Source: Pelagibacteraceae bacterium AG-404-P08
Lineage (GTDB): Bacteria; Pseudomonadota; Alphaproteobacteria; HIMB59
NCBI GenBank assembly: GCA_003216195.1
Contig: QCJF01000004.1
Location: 62,001-126,000, forward strand
Direction of reading: 5' to 3'
Length of the DNA: 64,000 bases
A program made the translations under genes and the position numbers. A model generated the notes under the pieces. The model was not told where the DNA came from. It searched no databases and saw only the letters and a list, made by a program, of their open reading frames with translations. Positions 4,725 to 62,448 of the stretch are shown piece after piece; position 1 is the first letter of the stretch; each line of letters opens with the position of its first letter.

Positions 4725-4801
4725 TGGCGCGCTTGGCAGGAATCGAACCTGCGACCCCCAGATTAGGAATCTGGTGCTCTATCCTACTGAGCTACAAGCG
4801 C
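4725..4801 (-). tRNA. tRNA-Arg (anticodon CCU)
   Basis: Complete cloverleaf on the minus strand: acceptor GCGCTTG pairs with CAAGCGC, then discriminator G and an encoded CCA (4725-4727). The anticodon stem CCAGA/TCTGG encloses TTCCTAA, giving anticodon CCT (reads AGG). The T-arm GCAGGTTCGATTCCTGC is intact. The first 64 nt are duplicated exactly at 7333-7396, marking it as the integration site of the element to its right. Confidence 0.95.
4738..4801. repeat. Attachment-site direct repeat, copy 1 (inside tRNA-Arg)
   Basis: These 64 bp, from tRNA nucleotide +1 through the T-loop, are identical to 7333-7396 (offset 2595). The identity stops exactly at the tRNA 5' end on one side and in the T-arm on the other. 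I interpret it as one att copy of a tRNA-targeting integrative element. Confidence 0.85.
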
Positions 4802-4854
4802 ATTACCTTGAGTATAAACGATTATCCGTCATAGTTTAAAATAAATTTTTTTAC

Positions 4855-4874
4855 CTTACTGCACTATGTATGCA
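4855..4874. repeat. 20-bp direct repeat with 11-bp-spaced TGCAC pair (left arm site)
   Basis: cttactgcactatgtatgca recurs exactly at 7233-7252, near the other end of the element. It holds TGCAC at 4860 and 4871, one helical turn apart, as expected for tyrosine-integrase arm-type sites. It lies directly upstream of the integrase stub. Confidence 0.6.
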
Positions 4875-4887
4875 CAAGGAGGTAAAC

Positions 4888-5100
4888 ATGGCTACATTTT
4901 TAAAAACAAAAAATAGAATACAAGCACAAGTAAGATTACGTGGAGTAAAAATATTTAAAACTTTTTCAGATAAAAAATCTGCTCGTGCATGGGCTACCAA
5001 TAAAGAAATGGAAATTATGCGTGGTAAGAAATATGAAGTTGATAAATCATTAACGCTAAAAGATTTATTAATTTGTATTAAATTCTTAAAACATAATTAA
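4888..5100 (+). pseudogene. Tyrosine integrase remnant (N-terminal arm-binding domain only)
   Basis: 70 aa starting MATFLKTKNRIQAQVRLRG, with a strong AAGGAGG at 4877-4883 only 4-5 nt before this ATG; an in-frame ATG at 4870 lacks such a site. The N-terminus aligns by eye with the intact integrase at 61504 (MATF, QVQVR, KKDALQWA.KE) and covers only the arm-binding domain. It stops in a spot equivalent to residue 68 of that protein, so the core-binding and catalytic domains are gone. Position beside the tRNA-Arg 5' end fits the element's original integrase. Confidence 0.75.
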
Positions 5101-5208
5101 CTCAATGCTTTTTGTTAGATTCAATTAACAACTATACAAATAATATTAAAAATGTTTTTTTTTGTATTCCCTTTACTGTTGGCGAAAAATTTTTTCTCAT
5201 AACATGAA
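5101..5208. other. Non-coding remnant between integrase stub and first 165-bp repeat
   Basis: 108 bp of AT-rich sequence with no convincing frame and no recognisable continuation of the integrase. It ends where the 165-bp repeat begins. Confidence 0.5.
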
Positions 5209-5373
5209 GTACCTTTATCTCTTAATCTGTTATTCTGTATCCTTGTGGGAACAGAATACAACAGGCAAGGGATTTATAGATCAGGAGTAAACTAAGGTTA
5301 AGGTCTATATGGCTGTATGGCACTAAGCCAATAAGCCAATAAGTTTATAAGATAATAAGGCGGTATTAACCGC
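5209..5373. repeat. 165-bp perfect direct repeat, copy 1
   Basis: Identical at every base to 6462-6626 (offset 1253). Internal structure: inverted repeat TATTCTGT (5231-5238) / ACAGAATA (5251-5258); five consecutive octamers of the form taagNNN with period 8 (5323-5362); and a terminal hairpin GCGGT-ATTA-ACCGC (5360-5373). No coding frame of interest. It cuts off the iron-ADH fragment at its right border. It may be a small mobile repeat, a structured RNA or a recombination scar; identity unknown. Confidence 0.9.
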
Positions 5374-5518
5374 TGAGGTTTTTGCCTCCATTATCGGTAA
5401 CCACTAAGGGTTTTTTAATGCCTTTGTTTTGACAAATTTCAGGCAGTTCGTTTATCCGACCAGGACCATAACGAATTGGCACAGGAAATGTCCAATTTTG
5501 ATGAGAAAGATAATCCAT
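5366..5518 (-). pseudogene. Iron-containing alcohol dehydrogenase, N-terminal fragment
   Basis: Translation from the ATG at 5518 gives 50 aa beginning MDYLSHQNWTFPVPIRYGPG, then RINELPEICQNKGIKKPLVVTDNGG. This is the N-terminal signature of Fe-dependent alcohol dehydrogenases (NW.FP..IR.G.GRI.ELP, then PL.VTD). The family is normally about 380 aa. Similarity ends exactly where the 165-bp repeat begins and a stop follows within the repeat, so the gene was truncated by the repeat or by recombination at it. The missing part is not found elsewhere in the window. Confidence 0.75.
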
Positions 5519-5640
5519 GAGTTATATTAATATTCTTTAAAGCTTCCTTGAAACCTATCAATTAATTTGAGGCTTTTAAAGAGGATACAAAATCAATACT
5601 GTATAAAAAATTATGAATATTTTTGAAAGTTCATGAGAAA

Positions 5641-6411
5641 ATGAAAATAGGAATATTTCAACCTAATATTAATCACTACTCAAGTATCGATAGTAAATTA
5701 ACAAAGATAGAGGCTATTTTAAAACAAAATGATTTAGATTTACTAGTTTTGCCTGAACTTTTTTTAAGTTTTTATTTATCAAAAGAACAAGTTTCCAAAT
5801 ATACAAATGAAGATGTTCAATTTTTTAAACAAAAGATTTTACAATTAAGTGAAAGATATCAATGTCATCTTGTTATTGGTTACCCAGAATTTGAAAATAA
5901 TCAAAAATTTAACAGCGCCCTAGTTACAGGAATTCAAAATGATATAATCTATAATCATCGAAAAACTTTTTTAGCTCCCAATCCTATGGAGCAGTCATTA
6001 TTTTCCAAAGGTCAAAATTTTGAAATTTTTGATATACATAAAATTAAATGTTCAACTCTTATTTGTTACGAGTTTGAATTTCCTGAGATAGTAAGAAAAT
6101 TAGCAAGATTAGGAGCGCAGCTCATTCTTGTTCCCACAGCTTTAATAGAGGAATTTAAATTTGTCTCTAATGAAATGCTTAAATCGAGGGCCTTTGAAAA
6201 TCAAATAGTGATGGTATATGCCAACTATTGCGGCAAATCAGAGAGTCACGATTTTTGTGGAAATAGTGCCATCGTAAATGAAAAGGGTGAAGACGTAATC
6301 AGACTGGGGGCAGAAGAAGAATTTGCGATGGCAGAAGTAAATTTTGAAAGTCAGGTATTGAGACGAAAAAGGTTACCTTATTTTAAGGATTTAACTAAAT
6401 TTGAAGCCTAA
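5641..6411 (+). CDS. Carbon-nitrogen hydrolase (nitrilase superfamily)
   Basis: 256 aa from the ATG at 5641; a TTG six codons upstream is possible. The catalytic triad is visible: Glu39 in LPELF, Lys108 in HRKTF and Cys142 in ICYEFEFPE. The fold covers the full domain, and the enzyme would hydrolyse an amide or nitrile in the cytosol. The resemblance is to the amidase/omega-amidase-like branch, but the substrate cannot be read. It is the only intact enzyme in the tRNA-Arg element and is bracketed by the two 165-bp repeats as a 1253-bp repeat-plus-cargo unit. Confidence 0.85.
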   Translation: MKIGIFQPNINHYSSIDSKLTKIEAILKQNDLDLLVLPELFLSFYLSKEQVSKYTNEDVQFFKQKILQLSERYQCHLVIGYPEFENNQKFNSALVTGIQNDIIYNHRKTFLAPNPMEQSLFSKGQNFEIFDIHKIKCSTLICYEFEFPEIVRKLARLGAQLILVPTALIEEFKFVSNEMLKSRAFENQIVMVYANYCGKSESHDFCGNSAIVNEKGEDVIRLGAEEEFAMAEVNFESQVLRRKRLPYFKDLTKFEA

Positions 6412-6461
6412 GTTCGCTGAAGTGTTTAGCTAATTTTTTCCCCGCTAACCAAGCATCCTGC

Positions 6462-6626
6462 GTACCTTTATCTCTTAATCTGTTATTCTGTATCCTTGTG
6501 GGAACAGAATACAACAGGCAAGGGATTTATAGATCAGGAGTAAACTAAGGTTAAGGTCTATATGGCTGTATGGCACTAAGCCAATAAGCCAATAAGTTTA
6601 TAAGATAATAAGGCGGTATTAACCGC
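6462..6626. repeat. 165-bp perfect direct repeat, copy 2
   Basis: Same sequence and orientation as 5209-5373, starting 50 bp after the nitrilase stop. The two copies are base-for-base identical, whereas the surrounding sequence is decayed. This suggests a recent event, gene conversion between copies, or selection on the repeat. Confidence 0.9.
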
Positions 6627-6690
6627 ACAATAAAGTACAGTCTGTATTTAATGTTTCGAACATGCTCTATTAACGTACTCCATGTGACTA

Positions 6691-6721
6691 TTAATCTGTA
6701 AAGGTAATAAGGCGGTTCTAT
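6691..6721. repeat. Possible decayed third copy of the 165-bp repeat
   Basis: TTAATCTGT (6691-6699), close to the start of the 165-bp unit, is followed at once by TAATAAGGCGGT (6705-6716), from its end. This looks like an internally deleted derivative with only the two extremities left. Confidence 0.4.
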
Positions 6722-6722
6722 T

Positions 6723-6908
6723 AAGTACATTGTACTTTCAATGACCCCGAATAATGTAGTACTTGCAATTGTCTAATCATGTACTTTCAAACACATATGT
6801 TTTGTATATTTTTCAACATGTATTGTGTAAACCCGACCACCTTATTAAGTCATATATGTAGTACATACTTTGCGTTATATTTGGGTTTACAGAAGGGAGT
6901 ACTTTCAA
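6723..6908. repeat. Cluster of GTACTTTCAA words and a palindrome
   Basis: GTACTTTCAA occurs at 6732-6741, 6781-6790 and 6899-6908, with a one-mismatch copy GTACTTGCAA at 6759-6768. The first overlaps a 15-bp palindrome AAGTACATTGTACTT (6723-6737). The last abuts the start of the small membrane ORF. They could be operator or replication-protein sites; function unknown. Confidence 0.45.
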
Positions 6909-7019
6909 ATGACATATTTATTGGGATTTATTTTTTTTCTAATGGTTGCCATTCACTTAGAAAATCTAAGACAATTCAGGGATATTAAGAATAAGTTAAA
7001 CGACATATACAATAAGTAG
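6909..7019 (+). CDS. Tiny single-pass membrane peptide (36 aa)
   Basis: ATG at 6909 opens a 36-aa frame: a hydrophobic segment (MTYLLGFIFFLMVAIHL) followed by a charged tail of the type LRQFRDIKNKLNDIYNK. A GGGAG at 6895-6899 lies 9-10 nt before the ATG. The layout (one membrane helix plus basic amphipathic helix) resembles small phage or toxin-like membrane peptides, but no family is recognisable. It lies in otherwise empty element DNA. It could be chance. Confidence 0.35.
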   Translation: MTYLLGFIFFLMVAIHLENLRQFRDIKNKLNDIYNK

Positions 7020-7332
7020 TTTACAACCTTTTTTTGAGATTTTAGCGGGAGGCTACCTATAATACATACAGACACCCGCCATGGCGCATCGGCACCATAC
7101 CCTATTTATTTTCTACATGTTAGGAATCATTTAAGAATCATAGAGGTATATTGAAAATGTTATGAATCCAATCGCCTACATAATTTAAAAAAGATTCTGT
7201 ATGATTCTTAAAATGGAAATTTAAACAAATAGCTTACTGCACTATGTATGCAAATATGATTCATAATGTGTTGGACGTATGGTAAGATACAAACATTGCA
7301 GTAAGAAAATGAAGGATAATTATTACGTGTAA
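7020..7332. other. Non-coding right end of the tRNA-Arg element
   Basis: No supportable gene. It holds a GCGGG...CCCGC inverted pair near 7045-7080, a 13-bp inverted repeat TTTAAGAATCATA (7130-7142) / TATGATTCTTAAA (7200-7212), and the second copy of the 20-bp arm-site repeat at 7233-7252. The concentration of repeats next to the att copy suggests recombination sites. Confidence 0.5.
7233..7252. repeat. 20-bp direct repeat (right arm site)
   Basis: Exact copy of 4855-4874. TGCAC at 7238 and TGCAA at 7249 again sit 11 bp apart. It lies 80 bp inside the right att copy. Confidence 0.6.
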
Positions 7333-7396
7333 AGGAATCGAACCTGCGACCCCCAGATTAGGAATCTGGTGCTCTATCCTACTGAGCTACAAGCGC
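7333..7396. repeat. Attachment-site direct repeat, copy 2 (5' part of tRNA-Arg)
   Basis: Perfect copy of tRNA-Arg nucleotides 1-64 on the minus strand. It lacks the 3' acceptor strand and CCA, so it is not a functional tRNA. It marks the right boundary of the element and is probably the original tRNA 5' half displaced by integration. Confidence 0.85.
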
Positions 7397-59297: not shown

Positions 59298-60173
59298 ATG
59301 ATTAAACCCCTAATAAGTAAATTATTTAGTTTGATATTTCTTCTTATATTAATCAAAACTAATGCTTTAGGTAATAATTTCCTATTTGATAAAAATGGCA
59401 ATTTATTTATAGAAACTTCAAATAGTGGTTTTATATTTCATAAAAACTTTATGGGCCAAAACAAACATAACTTTGATTATATAAAGGACAATTCAAAATC
59501 ACGAAGTGGTAATTATTATCAAAAATTTGAACTTAGAAATGGTGATTGTTTTGGTGATGAAAATTGGAGTGACTGCGATAATGATAGACAAAGGATTGAG
59601 TTTTCTTCAGAGCCAAATCAACCAATATTTGGTAAACAATGTTATGGTTACAGCATAAAACTATCTAATAATTTTACTGATATTAAGAAAGTTAGCACAA
59701 CATTAGGTCAGATACACCAAAAGGGTGGCCCATCTGGAAAAGCAAATAGTTTACCTTCCTTCCCTCCGTTGATTCAAATTGATGCTAGAAAAGGAAATTT
59801 GTACTTAAATTGGCATAAACTTAGTGGCTCTAGAGATAATGTTAGAGATGAATCAAAATATTATAAATTAAAAACATTAAAAAGTATGAAAGGTGTATGG
59901 ACAGATATTTCTTTGTGCTTAGATTTTGAAAATAAGAGAATAGATGCTTGGGTTGATGGGAATAACATTGTTAAAATCTCAGAGTCACCAATATTTTTTG
60001 AGCCAAAGTCAATTTACTTTAAACACGGTATATATCAGTCTTTCATCAGTAACTACACTTCATTCAAAAGGGAAACACCTACACAAATTGTATATTATGA
60101 TGAGGTAAGAAGAGGTAATTCTATTGAAGATGTAGATGTCAACGTTAACCCTGATTTAGAATTTATTGATTAA
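59298..60173 (+). CDS. Secreted polysaccharide lyase (PF14099-like jelly-roll)
   Basis: 291 aa with a signal peptide (about 1-24). Beta-jelly-roll features: YYQKFELRNGDCFGDENWSDC, GQIHQKGG, PPLIQIDARKGNLYL, and the C-terminal YFKHGIYQSF with TQIVYYDEVRRGNS typical of the heparin-lyase-like PF14099 group. It would cleave uronic-acid-containing polysaccharide outside the cell. It ends 14 bp before the tRNA-Gly att copy, and may be a previous cargo or host gene. Confidence 0.75.
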   Translation: MIKPLISKLFSLIFLLILIKTNALGNNFLFDKNGNLFIETSNSGFIFHKNFMGQNKHNFDYIKDNSKSRSGNYYQKFELRNGDCFGDENWSDCDNDRQRIEFSSEPNQPIFGKQCYGYSIKLSNNFTDIKKVSTTLGQIHQKGGPSGKANSLPSFPPLIQIDARKGNLYLNWHKLSGSRDNVRDESKYYKLKTLKSMKGVWTDISLCLDFENKRIDAWVDGNNIVKISESPIFFEPKSIYFKHGIYQSFISNYTSFKRETPTQIVYYDEVRRGNSIEDVDVNVNPDLEFID

Positions 60174-60186
60174 AAATGTCATGTAA

Positions 60187-60239
60187 TTTGGAGCGGGCGA
60201 AGGGATTCGAACCCTCGACTTCAACCTTGGCAAGGTTGC
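60187..60239. repeat. Attachment-site direct repeat: 3' part of tRNA-Gly, copy 1
   Basis: 53 bp identical to 61365-61417 (offset 1178), covering the tRNA-Gly 3' end with CCA, T-arm and most of the anticodon arm. It lacks the 5' half and is not a functional tRNA. Left boundary of the 1.18-kb element. Confidence 0.9.
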
Positions 60240-60307
60240 CATGTACAATTTATACTAAGTTAAATAGACAATTTTTTTTTATAATATTTCAGATTTTGAT
60301 TTCAAAG

Positions 60308-60326
60308 TGTCGGAGAGGTGTCGGAC
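60308..60326. repeat. 11-bp-spaced pair TGTCGGAG / TGTCGGAC (left arm sites)
   Basis: TGTCGGAG at 60308 and TGTCGGAC at 60319, one helical turn apart, 69 bp inside the left att copy. The same word pair recurs at the right end (61326). Confidence 0.6.
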
Positions 60327-60369
60327 GTTTTTGTAGATTTTTACTTTTTTTTGGTATTAATTATTAATT

Positions 60370-61311
60370 GTGAAAACTTATGATTTAGGAAAAATTGAGC
60401 AGGTCGACGTAAGAGAGATTTGGGAAAAAGAAGATACAGAATTTACCCCATGGTTAGCAAAACAGGAAAATATAGAAAGATTAGGTCTTGCTTTAGGAAT
60501 TGACTTAGTTGTTGAGGCAGAAGAAAAAGAAGTTGGGCCTTTTAGGGCTGACATATTATGTAAAAATGAAGCCACTGAAGAATGGGTATTAATTGAAAAT
60601 CAATTAGAAAAAACAGATCATAAGCACTTAGGACAGCTTTTAACTTATGCAACAGGCTTAGAAGCTGTTACAATTGTTTGGGTAGCAAAAGATTTTAGTG
60701 AAGAACATAGAGCAGCACTTGATTGGCTAAATAAAATTACTGAAGAAAAATATACTTTTTTTGGAATTAAAATTGAAATTTTAAGAATTGGAGAAAGTAT
60801 GGCTCCAAATTTTAAAGTGGTAAGTCAGCCTAATGATTGGTCAAAAAGTATATCCTCTGCGGTATCAAAAATTACTTCAGAAGATTTAAGCGAAACAAAA
60901 TTAATGCAACTAGATTTTCATAATGAAGTTTGTAATAAAATTAAAAGTAAAAACTTAACTAATTTAAAAATAAGAAAGGCTTTTCCTCAAGCTTATCATA
61001 TTTATGCAATTGGCAAATCTGTTGGGCACTTAGCACACGTCTGGAATACAAGAGAGAACACGCTAGTTGTTGAGGTGTATTTTCCTAAAGACAAATCTAT
61101 TATTGAAAATCTGCACAAAGACAAAGACGAAATTGAAAATGAATTTGGTGAAAATTTAGATTGGCAATTTTTACCTAATAAAATAGCTTCTAGAATTGCA
61201 CTAACAAGAGAAAATACGTTTTTAAAACAAAAAGAAAATTGGGATCAATATATTGATTGGGCGATTACTAAATTAGACAAGCTTTACCAAGTTTTTCATA
61301 AAAGATTATAA
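60370..61311 (+). CDS. DUF4268 protein with PD-(D/E)XK-like nuclease core
   Basis: 313 aa from a GTG start. The N-terminal part carries a nuclease-like core: GPFRADILCKN (Asp61) then WVLIENQLEKTDHKHLGQLLTYA (Glu76, Gln78), i.e. the D...ExQ form of PD-(D/E)XK. The C-terminal ~120 residues contain the DUF4268 pattern (IYAIGKSVGHLAHVWN, LVVEVYFPKDKSIIENLHKDK). Proteins of this type are often found alone in mobile elements and suspected of defence; not shown here. It is the sole gene of the tRNA-Gly element. Confidence 0.8.
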   Translation: MKTYDLGKIEQVDVREIWEKEDTEFTPWLAKQENIERLGLALGIDLVVEAEEKEVGPFRADILCKNEATEEWVLIENQLEKTDHKHLGQLLTYATGLEAVTIVWVAKDFSEEHRAALDWLNKITEEKYTFFGIKIEILRIGESMAPNFKVVSQPNDWSKSISSAVSKITSEDLSETKLMQLDFHNEVCNKIKSKNLTNLKIRKAFPQAYHIYAIGKSVGHLAHVWNTRENTLVVEVYFPKDKSIIENLHKDKDEIENEFGENLDWQFLPNKIASRIALTRENTFLKQKENWDQYIDWAITKLDKLYQVFHKRL

Positions 61312-61325
61312 AGTAAATTACCAAC

Positions 61326-61344
61326 TGTCGGAGAAAAGTCGGAG
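61326..61344. repeat. 11-bp-spaced pair TGTCGGAG / AGTCGGAG (right arm sites)
   Basis: Pair at 61326 and 61337, 21 bp inside the right att copy, same orientation as the left pair. Confidence 0.6.
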
Positions 61345-61364
61345 AAATATAAAAAAGTTTATTT

Positions 61365-61417
61365 TTTGGAGCGGGCGAAGGGATTCGAACCCTCGACTTC
61401 AACCTTGGCAAGGTTGC
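61365..61417. repeat. Attachment-site direct repeat: 3' part of tRNA-Gly, copy 2 (within the tRNA)
   Basis: Partner of 60187-60239. This copy continues into the intact 5' half and so is the one within the functional tRNA. Confidence 0.9.
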
Positions 61418-61441
61418 GCTCTACCCCTGAGCTACGCCCGC
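61367..61441 (-). tRNA. tRNA-Gly (anticodon GCC)
   Basis: Full cloverleaf on the minus strand: acceptor GCGGGCG/CGCCCGC, discriminator T, encoded CCA (61367-61369); anticodon stem CAACC/GGTTG around TTGCCAA gives GCC. T-arm GAGGGTTCGAATCCCTT. It is flanked on both sides by integrated DNA. Confidence 0.95.
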
Positions 61442-61473: not shown

Positions 61474-61492
61474 TGTCACAACTGTGTCACAA
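61474..61492. repeat. 11-bp-spaced pair of TGTCACAA (arm sites of the intact integrase)
   Basis: TGTCACAA at 61474 and 61485, exactly 11 bp apart, 33 bp from the tRNA 5' end and just ahead of the integrase ribosome site. Same TGTC core and spacing as the pairs in the neighbouring element. Confidence 0.6.
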
Positions 61493-61503: not shown

Positions 61504-62448
61504 ATGGCAACATTCAGAAGAAGAAACAATAAATGGCAAGTTCAAGTTAGAAGGGCTCACCTAGGCTCAATCAGCCAGACTTTTAACCAAAAAAAAGATG
61601 CACTTCAGTGGGCTAGAGAGAAAGAGATAGAACTCCAGCAATACTGTATCGAATTCAAAAGAGATAAGTTCCCAATTCTCTCAGATTTAATTGCTAGATA
61701 TATAAAAACAGTTTCAATAAACAAAAGAGGCTATGACTTTGAGCGATACTGCTTCAACAACATTCTCAAGAGCAAAATATCAAAAACACCAATTAATTTT
61801 ATAACCACACAACATCTTTCTGAATACAGGGAACAGAGATTAAAGTCAGTAAGATATTCCACCTTTGTTAGAGAGCTAAATTTAATTAGACACCTCTTCT
61901 CTGTTGCAATCAAAGAGTGGGGGTTTGCTATCAATAATCCATGCAAAATGATTGCAAAGCCTATTGTAATTAATAGAAGAGAGAGGAGGCTATCCATTAG
62001 TGAATACAATTATCTAGTTAAAGGGAATTACCCGCAGTTGAAACTGAGAAATATAATAGAGTTAGCAATAGAAACTGGGATGAGGCGAGGTGAAATACTG
62101 AATATAAAAACTGAACACATTAACGGGCAAACACTCTTGATACCTCAAACTAAAAATGGTCATCCAAGAACAATACCTCTAACTAAAAGAGCCTTAAATA
62201 TTTTAGAGAATTCACATTTACCGTTTGCTTACACTCCAAATGCATTAAGAATTGCCTGGGAGAGATTAAAAAGGAATGGAAATATAAAAGACCTTCACTT
62301 TCATGACTTAAGGCATGAGGCTATCTCTAGATTTTTTGAAAAAGGGTTAAGCATGCCTGAGGTTGCTTTAATATCTGGACACAAAGATGTGAGAATGCTC
62401 TTCAGATACACCCACTTAAAAGCTATTGATTTATTGATTAAATTATAA
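61504..62448 (+). CDS. Tyrosine site-specific integrase
   Basis: 314 aa, complete. N-terminal arm-binding domain (MATFRRRNNKWQVQVRRAHL), SAM-like core-binding domain (about 60-150) and catalytic domain with Arg194 (GMRRGE), Lys217 (TKNG), His267-x-x-Arg270 (HDLRH), His293 (SGHKD) and the nucleophile Tyr302 (RYTH). AAGGAGAG precedes the ATG. It points away from the tRNA-Gly 5' end. It is the only intact integrase in the window and could also act on the neighbouring 1.18-kb element. Confidence 0.95.
   Translation: MATFRRRNNKWQVQVRRAHLGSISQTFNQKKDALQWAREKEIELQQYCIEFKRDKFPILSDLIARYIKTVSINKRGYDFERYCFNNILKSKISKTPINFITTQHLSEYREQRLKSVRYSTFVRELNLIRHLFSVAIKEWGFAINNPCKMIAKPIVINRRERRLSISEYNYLVKGNYPQLKLRNIIELAIETGMRRGEILNIKTEHINGQTLLIPQTKNGHPRTIPLTKRALNILENSHLPFAYTPNALRIAWERLKRNGNIKDLHFHDLRHEAISRFFEKGLSMPEVALISGHKDVRMLFRYTHLKAIDLLIKL

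What the first reader, a model, noticed from the sequence alone, without database searches (positions are those of the whole stretch)
60187..61417. Minimal integrase-less element: one nuclease-like gene between tRNA-Gly att copies
A 1178-bp unit has 53-bp tRNA-Gly 3' repeats at its ends, arm-like pairs near both, and only a DUF4268 gene. It looks like a satellite mobilised in trans, possibly by the integrase just across the tRNA (61504), with a putative defence or competition gene as cargo.
Basis: partly seen in the sequence, partly recalled or inferred. Interest (0 to 1): 0.66.

Follow-up and report, generated by a model that had tools for sequence, protein, structure and literature searches.

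The report
Single-gene element lacking its own integrase
A 1.2-kb DNA unit in a streamlined marine alphaproteobacterium consists of a complete phage-P2-style attachment site plus one candidate anti-phage gene and no integrase; related species carry whole rows of such one-gene units at tRNA and tmRNA genes, some of which have clearly jumped between species intact.

Summary
Observation confirmed. Window 60187-61366 is bounded by 53-bp copies of the tRNA-Gly 3' half. It has one 11-bp-period arm pair near each end (TGTCGGA type), the only perfect GC-containing pairs of that kind in 64 kb, and one intact gene matching candidate defence family PDC-S11 (DUF4268). No integrase or remnant is inside. 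The neighbouring integrase (61504) belongs to a separate 6.1-kb element with its own ends and different arms (TGTCACA), so it is not the likely helper. A related intact integrase in another species (G069) has the TGTCGGA pair beside it.

The unit is not unique. tRNA-Gly, tRNA-Arg and tmRNA genes in this order carry arrays of 0.5-1.5 kb one-gene cassettes with matched arm pairs of many sequence types. Whole cassettes are up to 99.6% identical between species whose adjacent core DNA is 81.6% identical, and array order differs. The arm layout equals the annotated Int-binding arms of phage P2.

Best reading: non-autonomous integrative gene cassettes moved in trans by P2-type integrases of matching arm specificity. 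Excision was not observed. Closest known: CIMEs and tRNA-linked 'additive' island cassettes. New variant of a known kind, more general than first proposed.

The parts
60187..60239 (-). left attachment repeat: 53-bp copy of the tRNA-Gly(GCC) 3' half, through the anticodon stem-loop
   Evidence: identical to 61365-61417
60308..60325 (+). left arm pair TGTCGGAGAGGTGTCGGA, 11-bp period, putative integrase arm-type sites
   Evidence: chance expectation 0.00; layout equals annotated Int arm sites of phage P2
60370..61311 (+). single cargo gene, 313 aa, GTG start: DUF4268 protein, full-length match to candidate phage-defence family PDC-S11
   Evidence: Pfam PF14088 E=1e-20; PADLOC PDC-S11 E=8.7e-113
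61326..61343 (+). right arm pair TGTCGGAGAAAAGTCGGA, 11-bp period
61365..61441 (-). right attachment site within an intact tRNA-Gly(GCC) gene (61367-61441)
61474..61491 (+). left arm pair TGTCACAACTGTGTCACA of the separate neighbouring 6.1-kb integrase element (not part of the unit)
   Evidence: matching pair at the other end, L004 11401
61504..62448 (+). tyrosine integrase IntA of the neighbouring element, which runs out of the window to G000:C4:129488 (not part of the unit)
   Evidence: Pfam PF00589; third tRNA-Gly copy
59298..60173 (+). polysaccharide-lyase-like gene that abuts the tRNA-Gly directly in relatives lacking the unit (empty-site flank)

Best explanation
The unit is a non-autonomous integrative gene cassette: a complete P2-type attP split over its two ends (arm pair - tRNA-Gly anticodon core - arm pair) plus one gene. 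A P2-like tyrosine integrase whose arm specificity is TGTCGGA, supplied in trans by another element (the IntB lineage seen in G069, or a phage carrying a relative), would recombine the two tRNA-Gly copies, release a circle of about 1.18 kb and reinsert it at a tRNA-Gly anticodon loop, regenerating the tRNA 3' half. Repeated insertions at the same tRNA build arrays of such cassettes. The cargo probably protects the host against phage. Shown: anatomy, matched arms, absence of an integrase, recurrence of the layout with many cargos and arm types, intact transfer of sister cassettes between species. Inferred: that this particular copy still moves, the identity of its helper, how DNA passes between cells, and the cargo's function.
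For: Arms and ends. P2's annotated Int-binding arms are 11-bp-period direct-repeat pairs on both sides of the core: P' TGTGGACACTGTGTGGACA is 8/8 and P is 6/8; the nearest phage integrases to IntB are Peduoviridae, the P2 family. For most integrases of this superfamily whose start could be placed, including the TGTCACA and the TGTCGGA type, an 11-bp-period pair lies between att and the integrase start, its sequence differing by lineage. Intact IntB in G069 has TGTCGGAGAGGTGTCGGA beside it. 43 intervals of 0.3-1.6 kb between tRNA-Gly copies: 25 reach a four-copy arm score of 40 at period 11, 0 of 4300 shuffles do, and one in total at six other spacings; nearly all hold one dominant ORF. A second TGTCGGA cassette lies at tRNA-Arg in the same genome. 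DUF4268 homologues at 29-31% identity (32-33%) are again ~1.2-kb one-gene units, at tmRNA and at tRNA-Gly, with other arms. Mobility of the class: sulfotransferase cassette 99.6% identical over its whole length between genomes whose core flank is 81.6% identical, with other array neighbours; similar for further cassettes. Empty sites and presence/absence. PDC-S11.
Against: No excised circle or recombination was seen. No close copy of this DUF4268 cassette was found, so its own mobility is argued from its class. The host assembly (82% complete) has no TGTCGGA-type integrase. The G069 integrase element has TTGGAGCG arms at its other end, so the IntB-TGTCGGA pairing rests on adjacency at one end. 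18 of 43 small intervals do not reach the arm threshold, and some have mismatched arms, so decay is common. The arm zones and threshold were set. Viral contigs gave no arm-plus-att match.
Confidence: 0.74

Rival explanations
1. Deletion remnant (CIME-type): an integrase-bearing element lost everything but its ends and one gene and is now stuck; arrays are graveyards of decayed elements.
For: TTGGAGCG-arm elements keep only 82-130 aa N-terminal integrase stubs next to the att; some small cassettes have mismatched or unrecognisable arms; a decayed integrase stub also lies in the tRNA-Arg unit of this window.
Against: No integrase trace in this unit or in DUF4268 cassette homologues at 29-31% identity; the same one-gene layout recurs with about 20 unrelated cargos, most with matched arms; intact one-gene cassettes moved recently between species. 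Origin by deletion and present mobility are not exclusive.
Confidence: 0.15
2. The neighbouring integrase (61504) mobilises the unit in trans.
For: Same tRNA-Gly core on both; adjacent; the core-binding specificity is presumably shared.
Against: Arms differ (TGTCGGA against TGTCACA), and the TGTCACA-type integrase elements examined carry TGTCACA-type pairs at both ends; G051 and G022 have that element without the unit.
Confidence: 0.08
3. The cassettes spread by homologous recombination at the tRNA locus, using the att copies and flanks as homology, and the arms are relics.
For: Homologous recombination is invoked for other islands of the HIMB59 clade (PMC10734472).
Against: Identity stops at the att: cassette 99.6% and core flank 81.6%, with different neighbours on the other side, leaving only the roughly 45-50 bp att as homology. 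Arm period and position stay sharp across unrelated cassettes.
Confidence: 0.07

Closest known systems
CIME (cis-mobilizable element; definition in PMC5704250)
   Same: att sites kept, integration and transfer genes absent, stands in tandem with integrase-bearing elements at a tRNA
   Different: CIMEs are decayed ICEs/IMEs; here units are one gene, recur with many cargos and arm types, and sister units moved between species without a linked integrase
Additive flexible genomic islands / tRNA-targeted gene cassettes of streamlined bacteria (Ca. Methylopumilus PMC10872708; Ca. Actinomarinales PMC7771536)
   Same: tRNA-fragment direct repeats delimiting small cassettes (330 bp-42 kb, 1-63 CDS in Methylopumilus) that differ between close relatives
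   Different: in the passages read, no integrase arm sites, no integrase-less attP definition, no helper matching
Peduoviridae (P2-type) attP
   Same: arm pair - core - arm pair, direct repeats with 11-bp period, homologous integrases
   Different: no integrase, excisionase or phage genes in the unit; core is a tRNA anticodon stem-loop
Tycheposons (Prochlorococcus; described via PMC10872708)
   Same: the neighbouring 6.1-kb element: tRNA at the border, tyrosine recombinase next to it, cargo
   Different: the unit has no recombinase and is 1.2 kb against 4-200 kb
Integron gene cassettes (from general knowledge)
   Same: one gene plus a recombination site, in arrays, moved by an integrase encoded elsewhere
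   Different: no IntI platform; the site is a tRNA half plus phage-type arms; arm sequence differs per cassette

Membership tests
P2-type (Peduoviridae) attachment site | pair of direct-repeat arm sites on each side of the core, same orientation | tested here: met
P2-type (Peduoviridae) attachment site | bound and recombined by a cognate integrase | not testable with these tools
   only adjacency of an IntB gene to near-identical arms in G069
CIME | retains attL and attR, lacks integration and transfer genes | tested here: met
CIME | derived by decay of an ICE or IME | tested here: inconclusive
   no remnant inside; decay seen in larger elements only
Tycheposon | carries its tyrosine recombinase | tested here: not met
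   one ORF only
Phage satellite (PICI/PICMI-like) | own integrase and replication or packaging-interference genes | tested here: not met
   one ORF only
Integron gene cassette | attC site and IntI integrase | tested here: inconclusive
   no attC search was run; the unit's ends are tRNA-Gly halves with arm pairs; NCBIfam integron-integrase model far below cut-off for IntA, 18 against 265 bits
PDC-S11 candidate defence family | full-length profile match | tested here: met
   residues 1-312, E=8.7e-113
PDC-S11 candidate defence family | anti-phage activity | not testable with these tools
   needs phage challenge
PD-(D/E)XK nuclease | D...(D/E)xK/Q motif on the nuclease fold | tested here: inconclusive
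   invariant D61 and E76-N-Q78 in five homologues; model pLDDT 74.5, no convincing nuclease hit, part of it resembles YbjN/CesT

The most novel reading that the evidence does not exclude
A general, integron-like gene-cassette economy without a resident integrase. tRNA and tmRNA genes serve as array platforms; each cassette is one gene plus a P2-type attP whose 11-bp arm sequence is a key to one of many integrase specificities circulating in phages and satellites. Cassettes, including single-gene anti-phage genes, thus hitchhike on whichever element brings the matching integrase.
Probability: 0.5. Interest if true: 0.86.

Novelty: new variant of a known kind. Interest (0 to 1): 0.73.

Why it matters
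It would explain how streamlined ocean bacteria gain single accessory genes at tRNA genes without carrying integrases or islands, and gives a readable arm code that predicts which integrase moves which gene. It also points to some of the smallest hitchhiking elements (down to 479 bp here) with testable helpers.

Tried and rejected
Genome and viral scans for DUF4268 with one protein found no relatives. An arm-plus-att pattern in viral contigs gave none. The single viral contig with the tRNA-Gly core lacks arms. DUF4268 structure: low-confidence model, matches weak. Extra conservation of arms over other noncoding DNA in sulfotransferase cassettes could not be judged, divergence too low. 11-bp pairs were not found by the script around the attP of Mannheimia phage PHL101, so the P2 comparison rests on P2 itself. 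GTTTAACACC-type repeats in several genus members were seen by eye but not captured by the period-11 test. Neighbouring integrase as helper: rejected on arms.

Full report
Observation. The unit is real and exact. 53-bp repeats lie at 60187-60239 and 61365-61417, 1178 bp apart, and the right one is part of an intact tRNA-Gly(GCC) gene on the minus strand. Between them is one ORF, 60370-61311, a DUF4268 protein. Near each end is a pair of TGTCGGA repeats with an 11-bp period (60308 and 61326; chance expectation 0.00). These are the only perfect 11-bp-period pairs with at least four G/C bases in the 64-kb window.

The neighbour is a different element. A third complete tRNA-Gly copy lies 6.1 kb to the right, outside the window. 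The integrase at 61504 sits between the second and third copies, and that interval has TGTCACA pairs at both ends. G051 and G022 carry that integrase element at the same tRNA without the DUF4268 unit. In G051, G049, G020 and G047 the polysaccharide-lyase-like gene that borders our unit abuts the full tRNA-Gly directly, which shows the left junction of the empty site. So the unit is an independent insertion, and its arms do not match the neighbour's integrase.

It is one of many. tRNA-Gly cores repeated in tandem were found in many genomes of the order (by my count of the table about 66 of the 127 with a recognisable site have two or more). I read 52 loci, which gave 79 att-to-att intervals. 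Of 43 intervals of 0.3-1.6 kb, 25 have a four-copy arm score of 40 or more at period 11. At periods 8, 9, 10, 12, 13 and 14 the total is one, and in 4300 shuffles none. The zones and threshold were set after a first look, so the contrast between periods is the fairer control. Pairing a left end with a right end of another cassette reached 40 in 11% of cases, because several cassettes share arm types. Arm position is stereotyped: about 70-85 bp after the core and 40-68 bp before the next one. Nearly every cassette holds one dominant ORF; cargos are a sulfotransferase, FkbM methyltransferases, DUF805, MFS, HNH, a LexA-like DNA-binding protein, lipoprotein-like and unknown proteins.

Other target genes and arm types. 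The host genome has a second TGTCGGA-armed cassette at tRNA-Arg(TCG), next to a TGTCCCA-armed one. In two relatives a DUF4268 homologue (31% identity) is the sole gene of a ~1.19-kb unit at the tmRNA gene with TGTGTCA arms. In a genome of another family a third homologue (29%) is the sole gene of a 1180-bp unit at tRNA-Gly with ACTGC-type arms. The same kind of gene thus keeps the same layout across three arm types and two target genes.

Integrases and arms. Integrases of this superfamily in the order mostly carry an 11-bp-period pair between the target gene and their start codon, with sequences differing by lineage (in L145, L161 and L163 no pair met the criterion). The TGTCGGA pair lies beside an intact integrase of 333 aa in G069; that element's other end has TTGGAGCG arms, so the pairing rests on one end. 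The nearest phage integrases are of Peduoviridae. In phage P2 itself the annotated Int-binding P and P' arms are 11-bp-period direct repeats on both sides of the core. This ties the repeats seen here to a known kind of binding site; it is an inference by analogy, not a binding assay.

Mobility. Whole cassettes were compared with the core DNA beyond the tRNA. The sulfotransferase cassette of L098 and L106 is 99.6% identical over 1286 bp while 2.9 kb of flank is 81.6% identical. L111/L127: 98.3 against 83.6. The 97-aa-protein cassette of L098/L109: 97.4 against 81.2. Of 66 comparable pairs, 19 have the cassette more than 8 points above the flank, and 17 the reverse, as expected if cassettes come from mixed sources. 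Array order also differs (sulfotransferase distal in L098, next to the tRNA in L106 and L110). Integrase-less units therefore move as units. No such near-identical copy was found for the DUF4268 unit itself.

Cargo. The protein matches all four PDC-S11 profiles of PADLOC, the best at E=8.7e-113 over residues 1-312. PDC are candidates, not tested systems. D61 and E76-N-Q78 are invariant in five homologues and fit a PD-(D/E)XK-like site, but the structural model was weak and did not confirm a nuclease fold. Relatives occur on plasmids and in an archaeal provirus.

Decay. TTGGAGCG-armed elements of 2.8-4.6 kb keep only N-terminal integrase stubs, and several cassettes have mismatched arms (L110, L124). 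Loss of the integrase therefore happens, and may be how such cassettes arise.

Host. Named relatives are single-cell and metagenome assemblies of uncultured marine Alphaproteobacteria. That the order is HIMB59/AEGEAN-169 is my inference from genome size, habitat and these records; not verified.

Literature. tRNA-fragment repeats delimiting small cassettes are described for Ca. Methylopumilus (PMC10872708) and Ca. Actinomarinales (PMC7771536), and CIMEs in PMC5704250; the HIMB59 island paper mentions no integrase, and tRNA only as absent from its island borders (PMC10734472). I found no account of one-gene units with a complete split attP and matched arms. Only a limited open-access library was searched.

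Noticed in passing
window 4725-7395: Two tRNA-Arg(CCT) copies 2.6 kb apart enclose a 76-aa integrase N-terminal stub (4870-5100), a 262-aa ORF resembling a carbon-nitrogen hydrolase (by eye) and an exact 165-bp internal repeat (about 5209-5373 and 6462-6626): looks like a decayed integrated element.
   Followed up: partly
G000:C4:41148-43857 (L060 11148-13857): Array of two cassettes at the 5' side of tRNA-Arg(TCG), one TGTCGGA-armed and one TGTCCCA-armed; here the tRNA 5' half, not the 3' half, is repeated.
   Followed up: partly
L098, L099, L104, L122, L146, L147, L150, L151, L157, L164: N-terminal integrase stubs of roughly 70-130 aa next to TTGGAGCG/TTGGATCG arms recur in several genomes; either repeated deletion or a retained arm-binding domain with a role of its own.
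   Followed up: partly
L039-L045: tRNA-Gly elements of 1-4.5 kb in the host's genus with GTTTAACACC-type repeats near their ends and a different core continuation (TTGGCAATGATnAAGTCG): another element family at the same tRNA.
   Followed up: no
L092 (G142:C3:111579): Closest DUF4268 homologue in the order (45-46%) lies beside a gene with repeated NUMOD-like motifs, not in a cassette; possibly a phage or prophage region.
   Followed up: no
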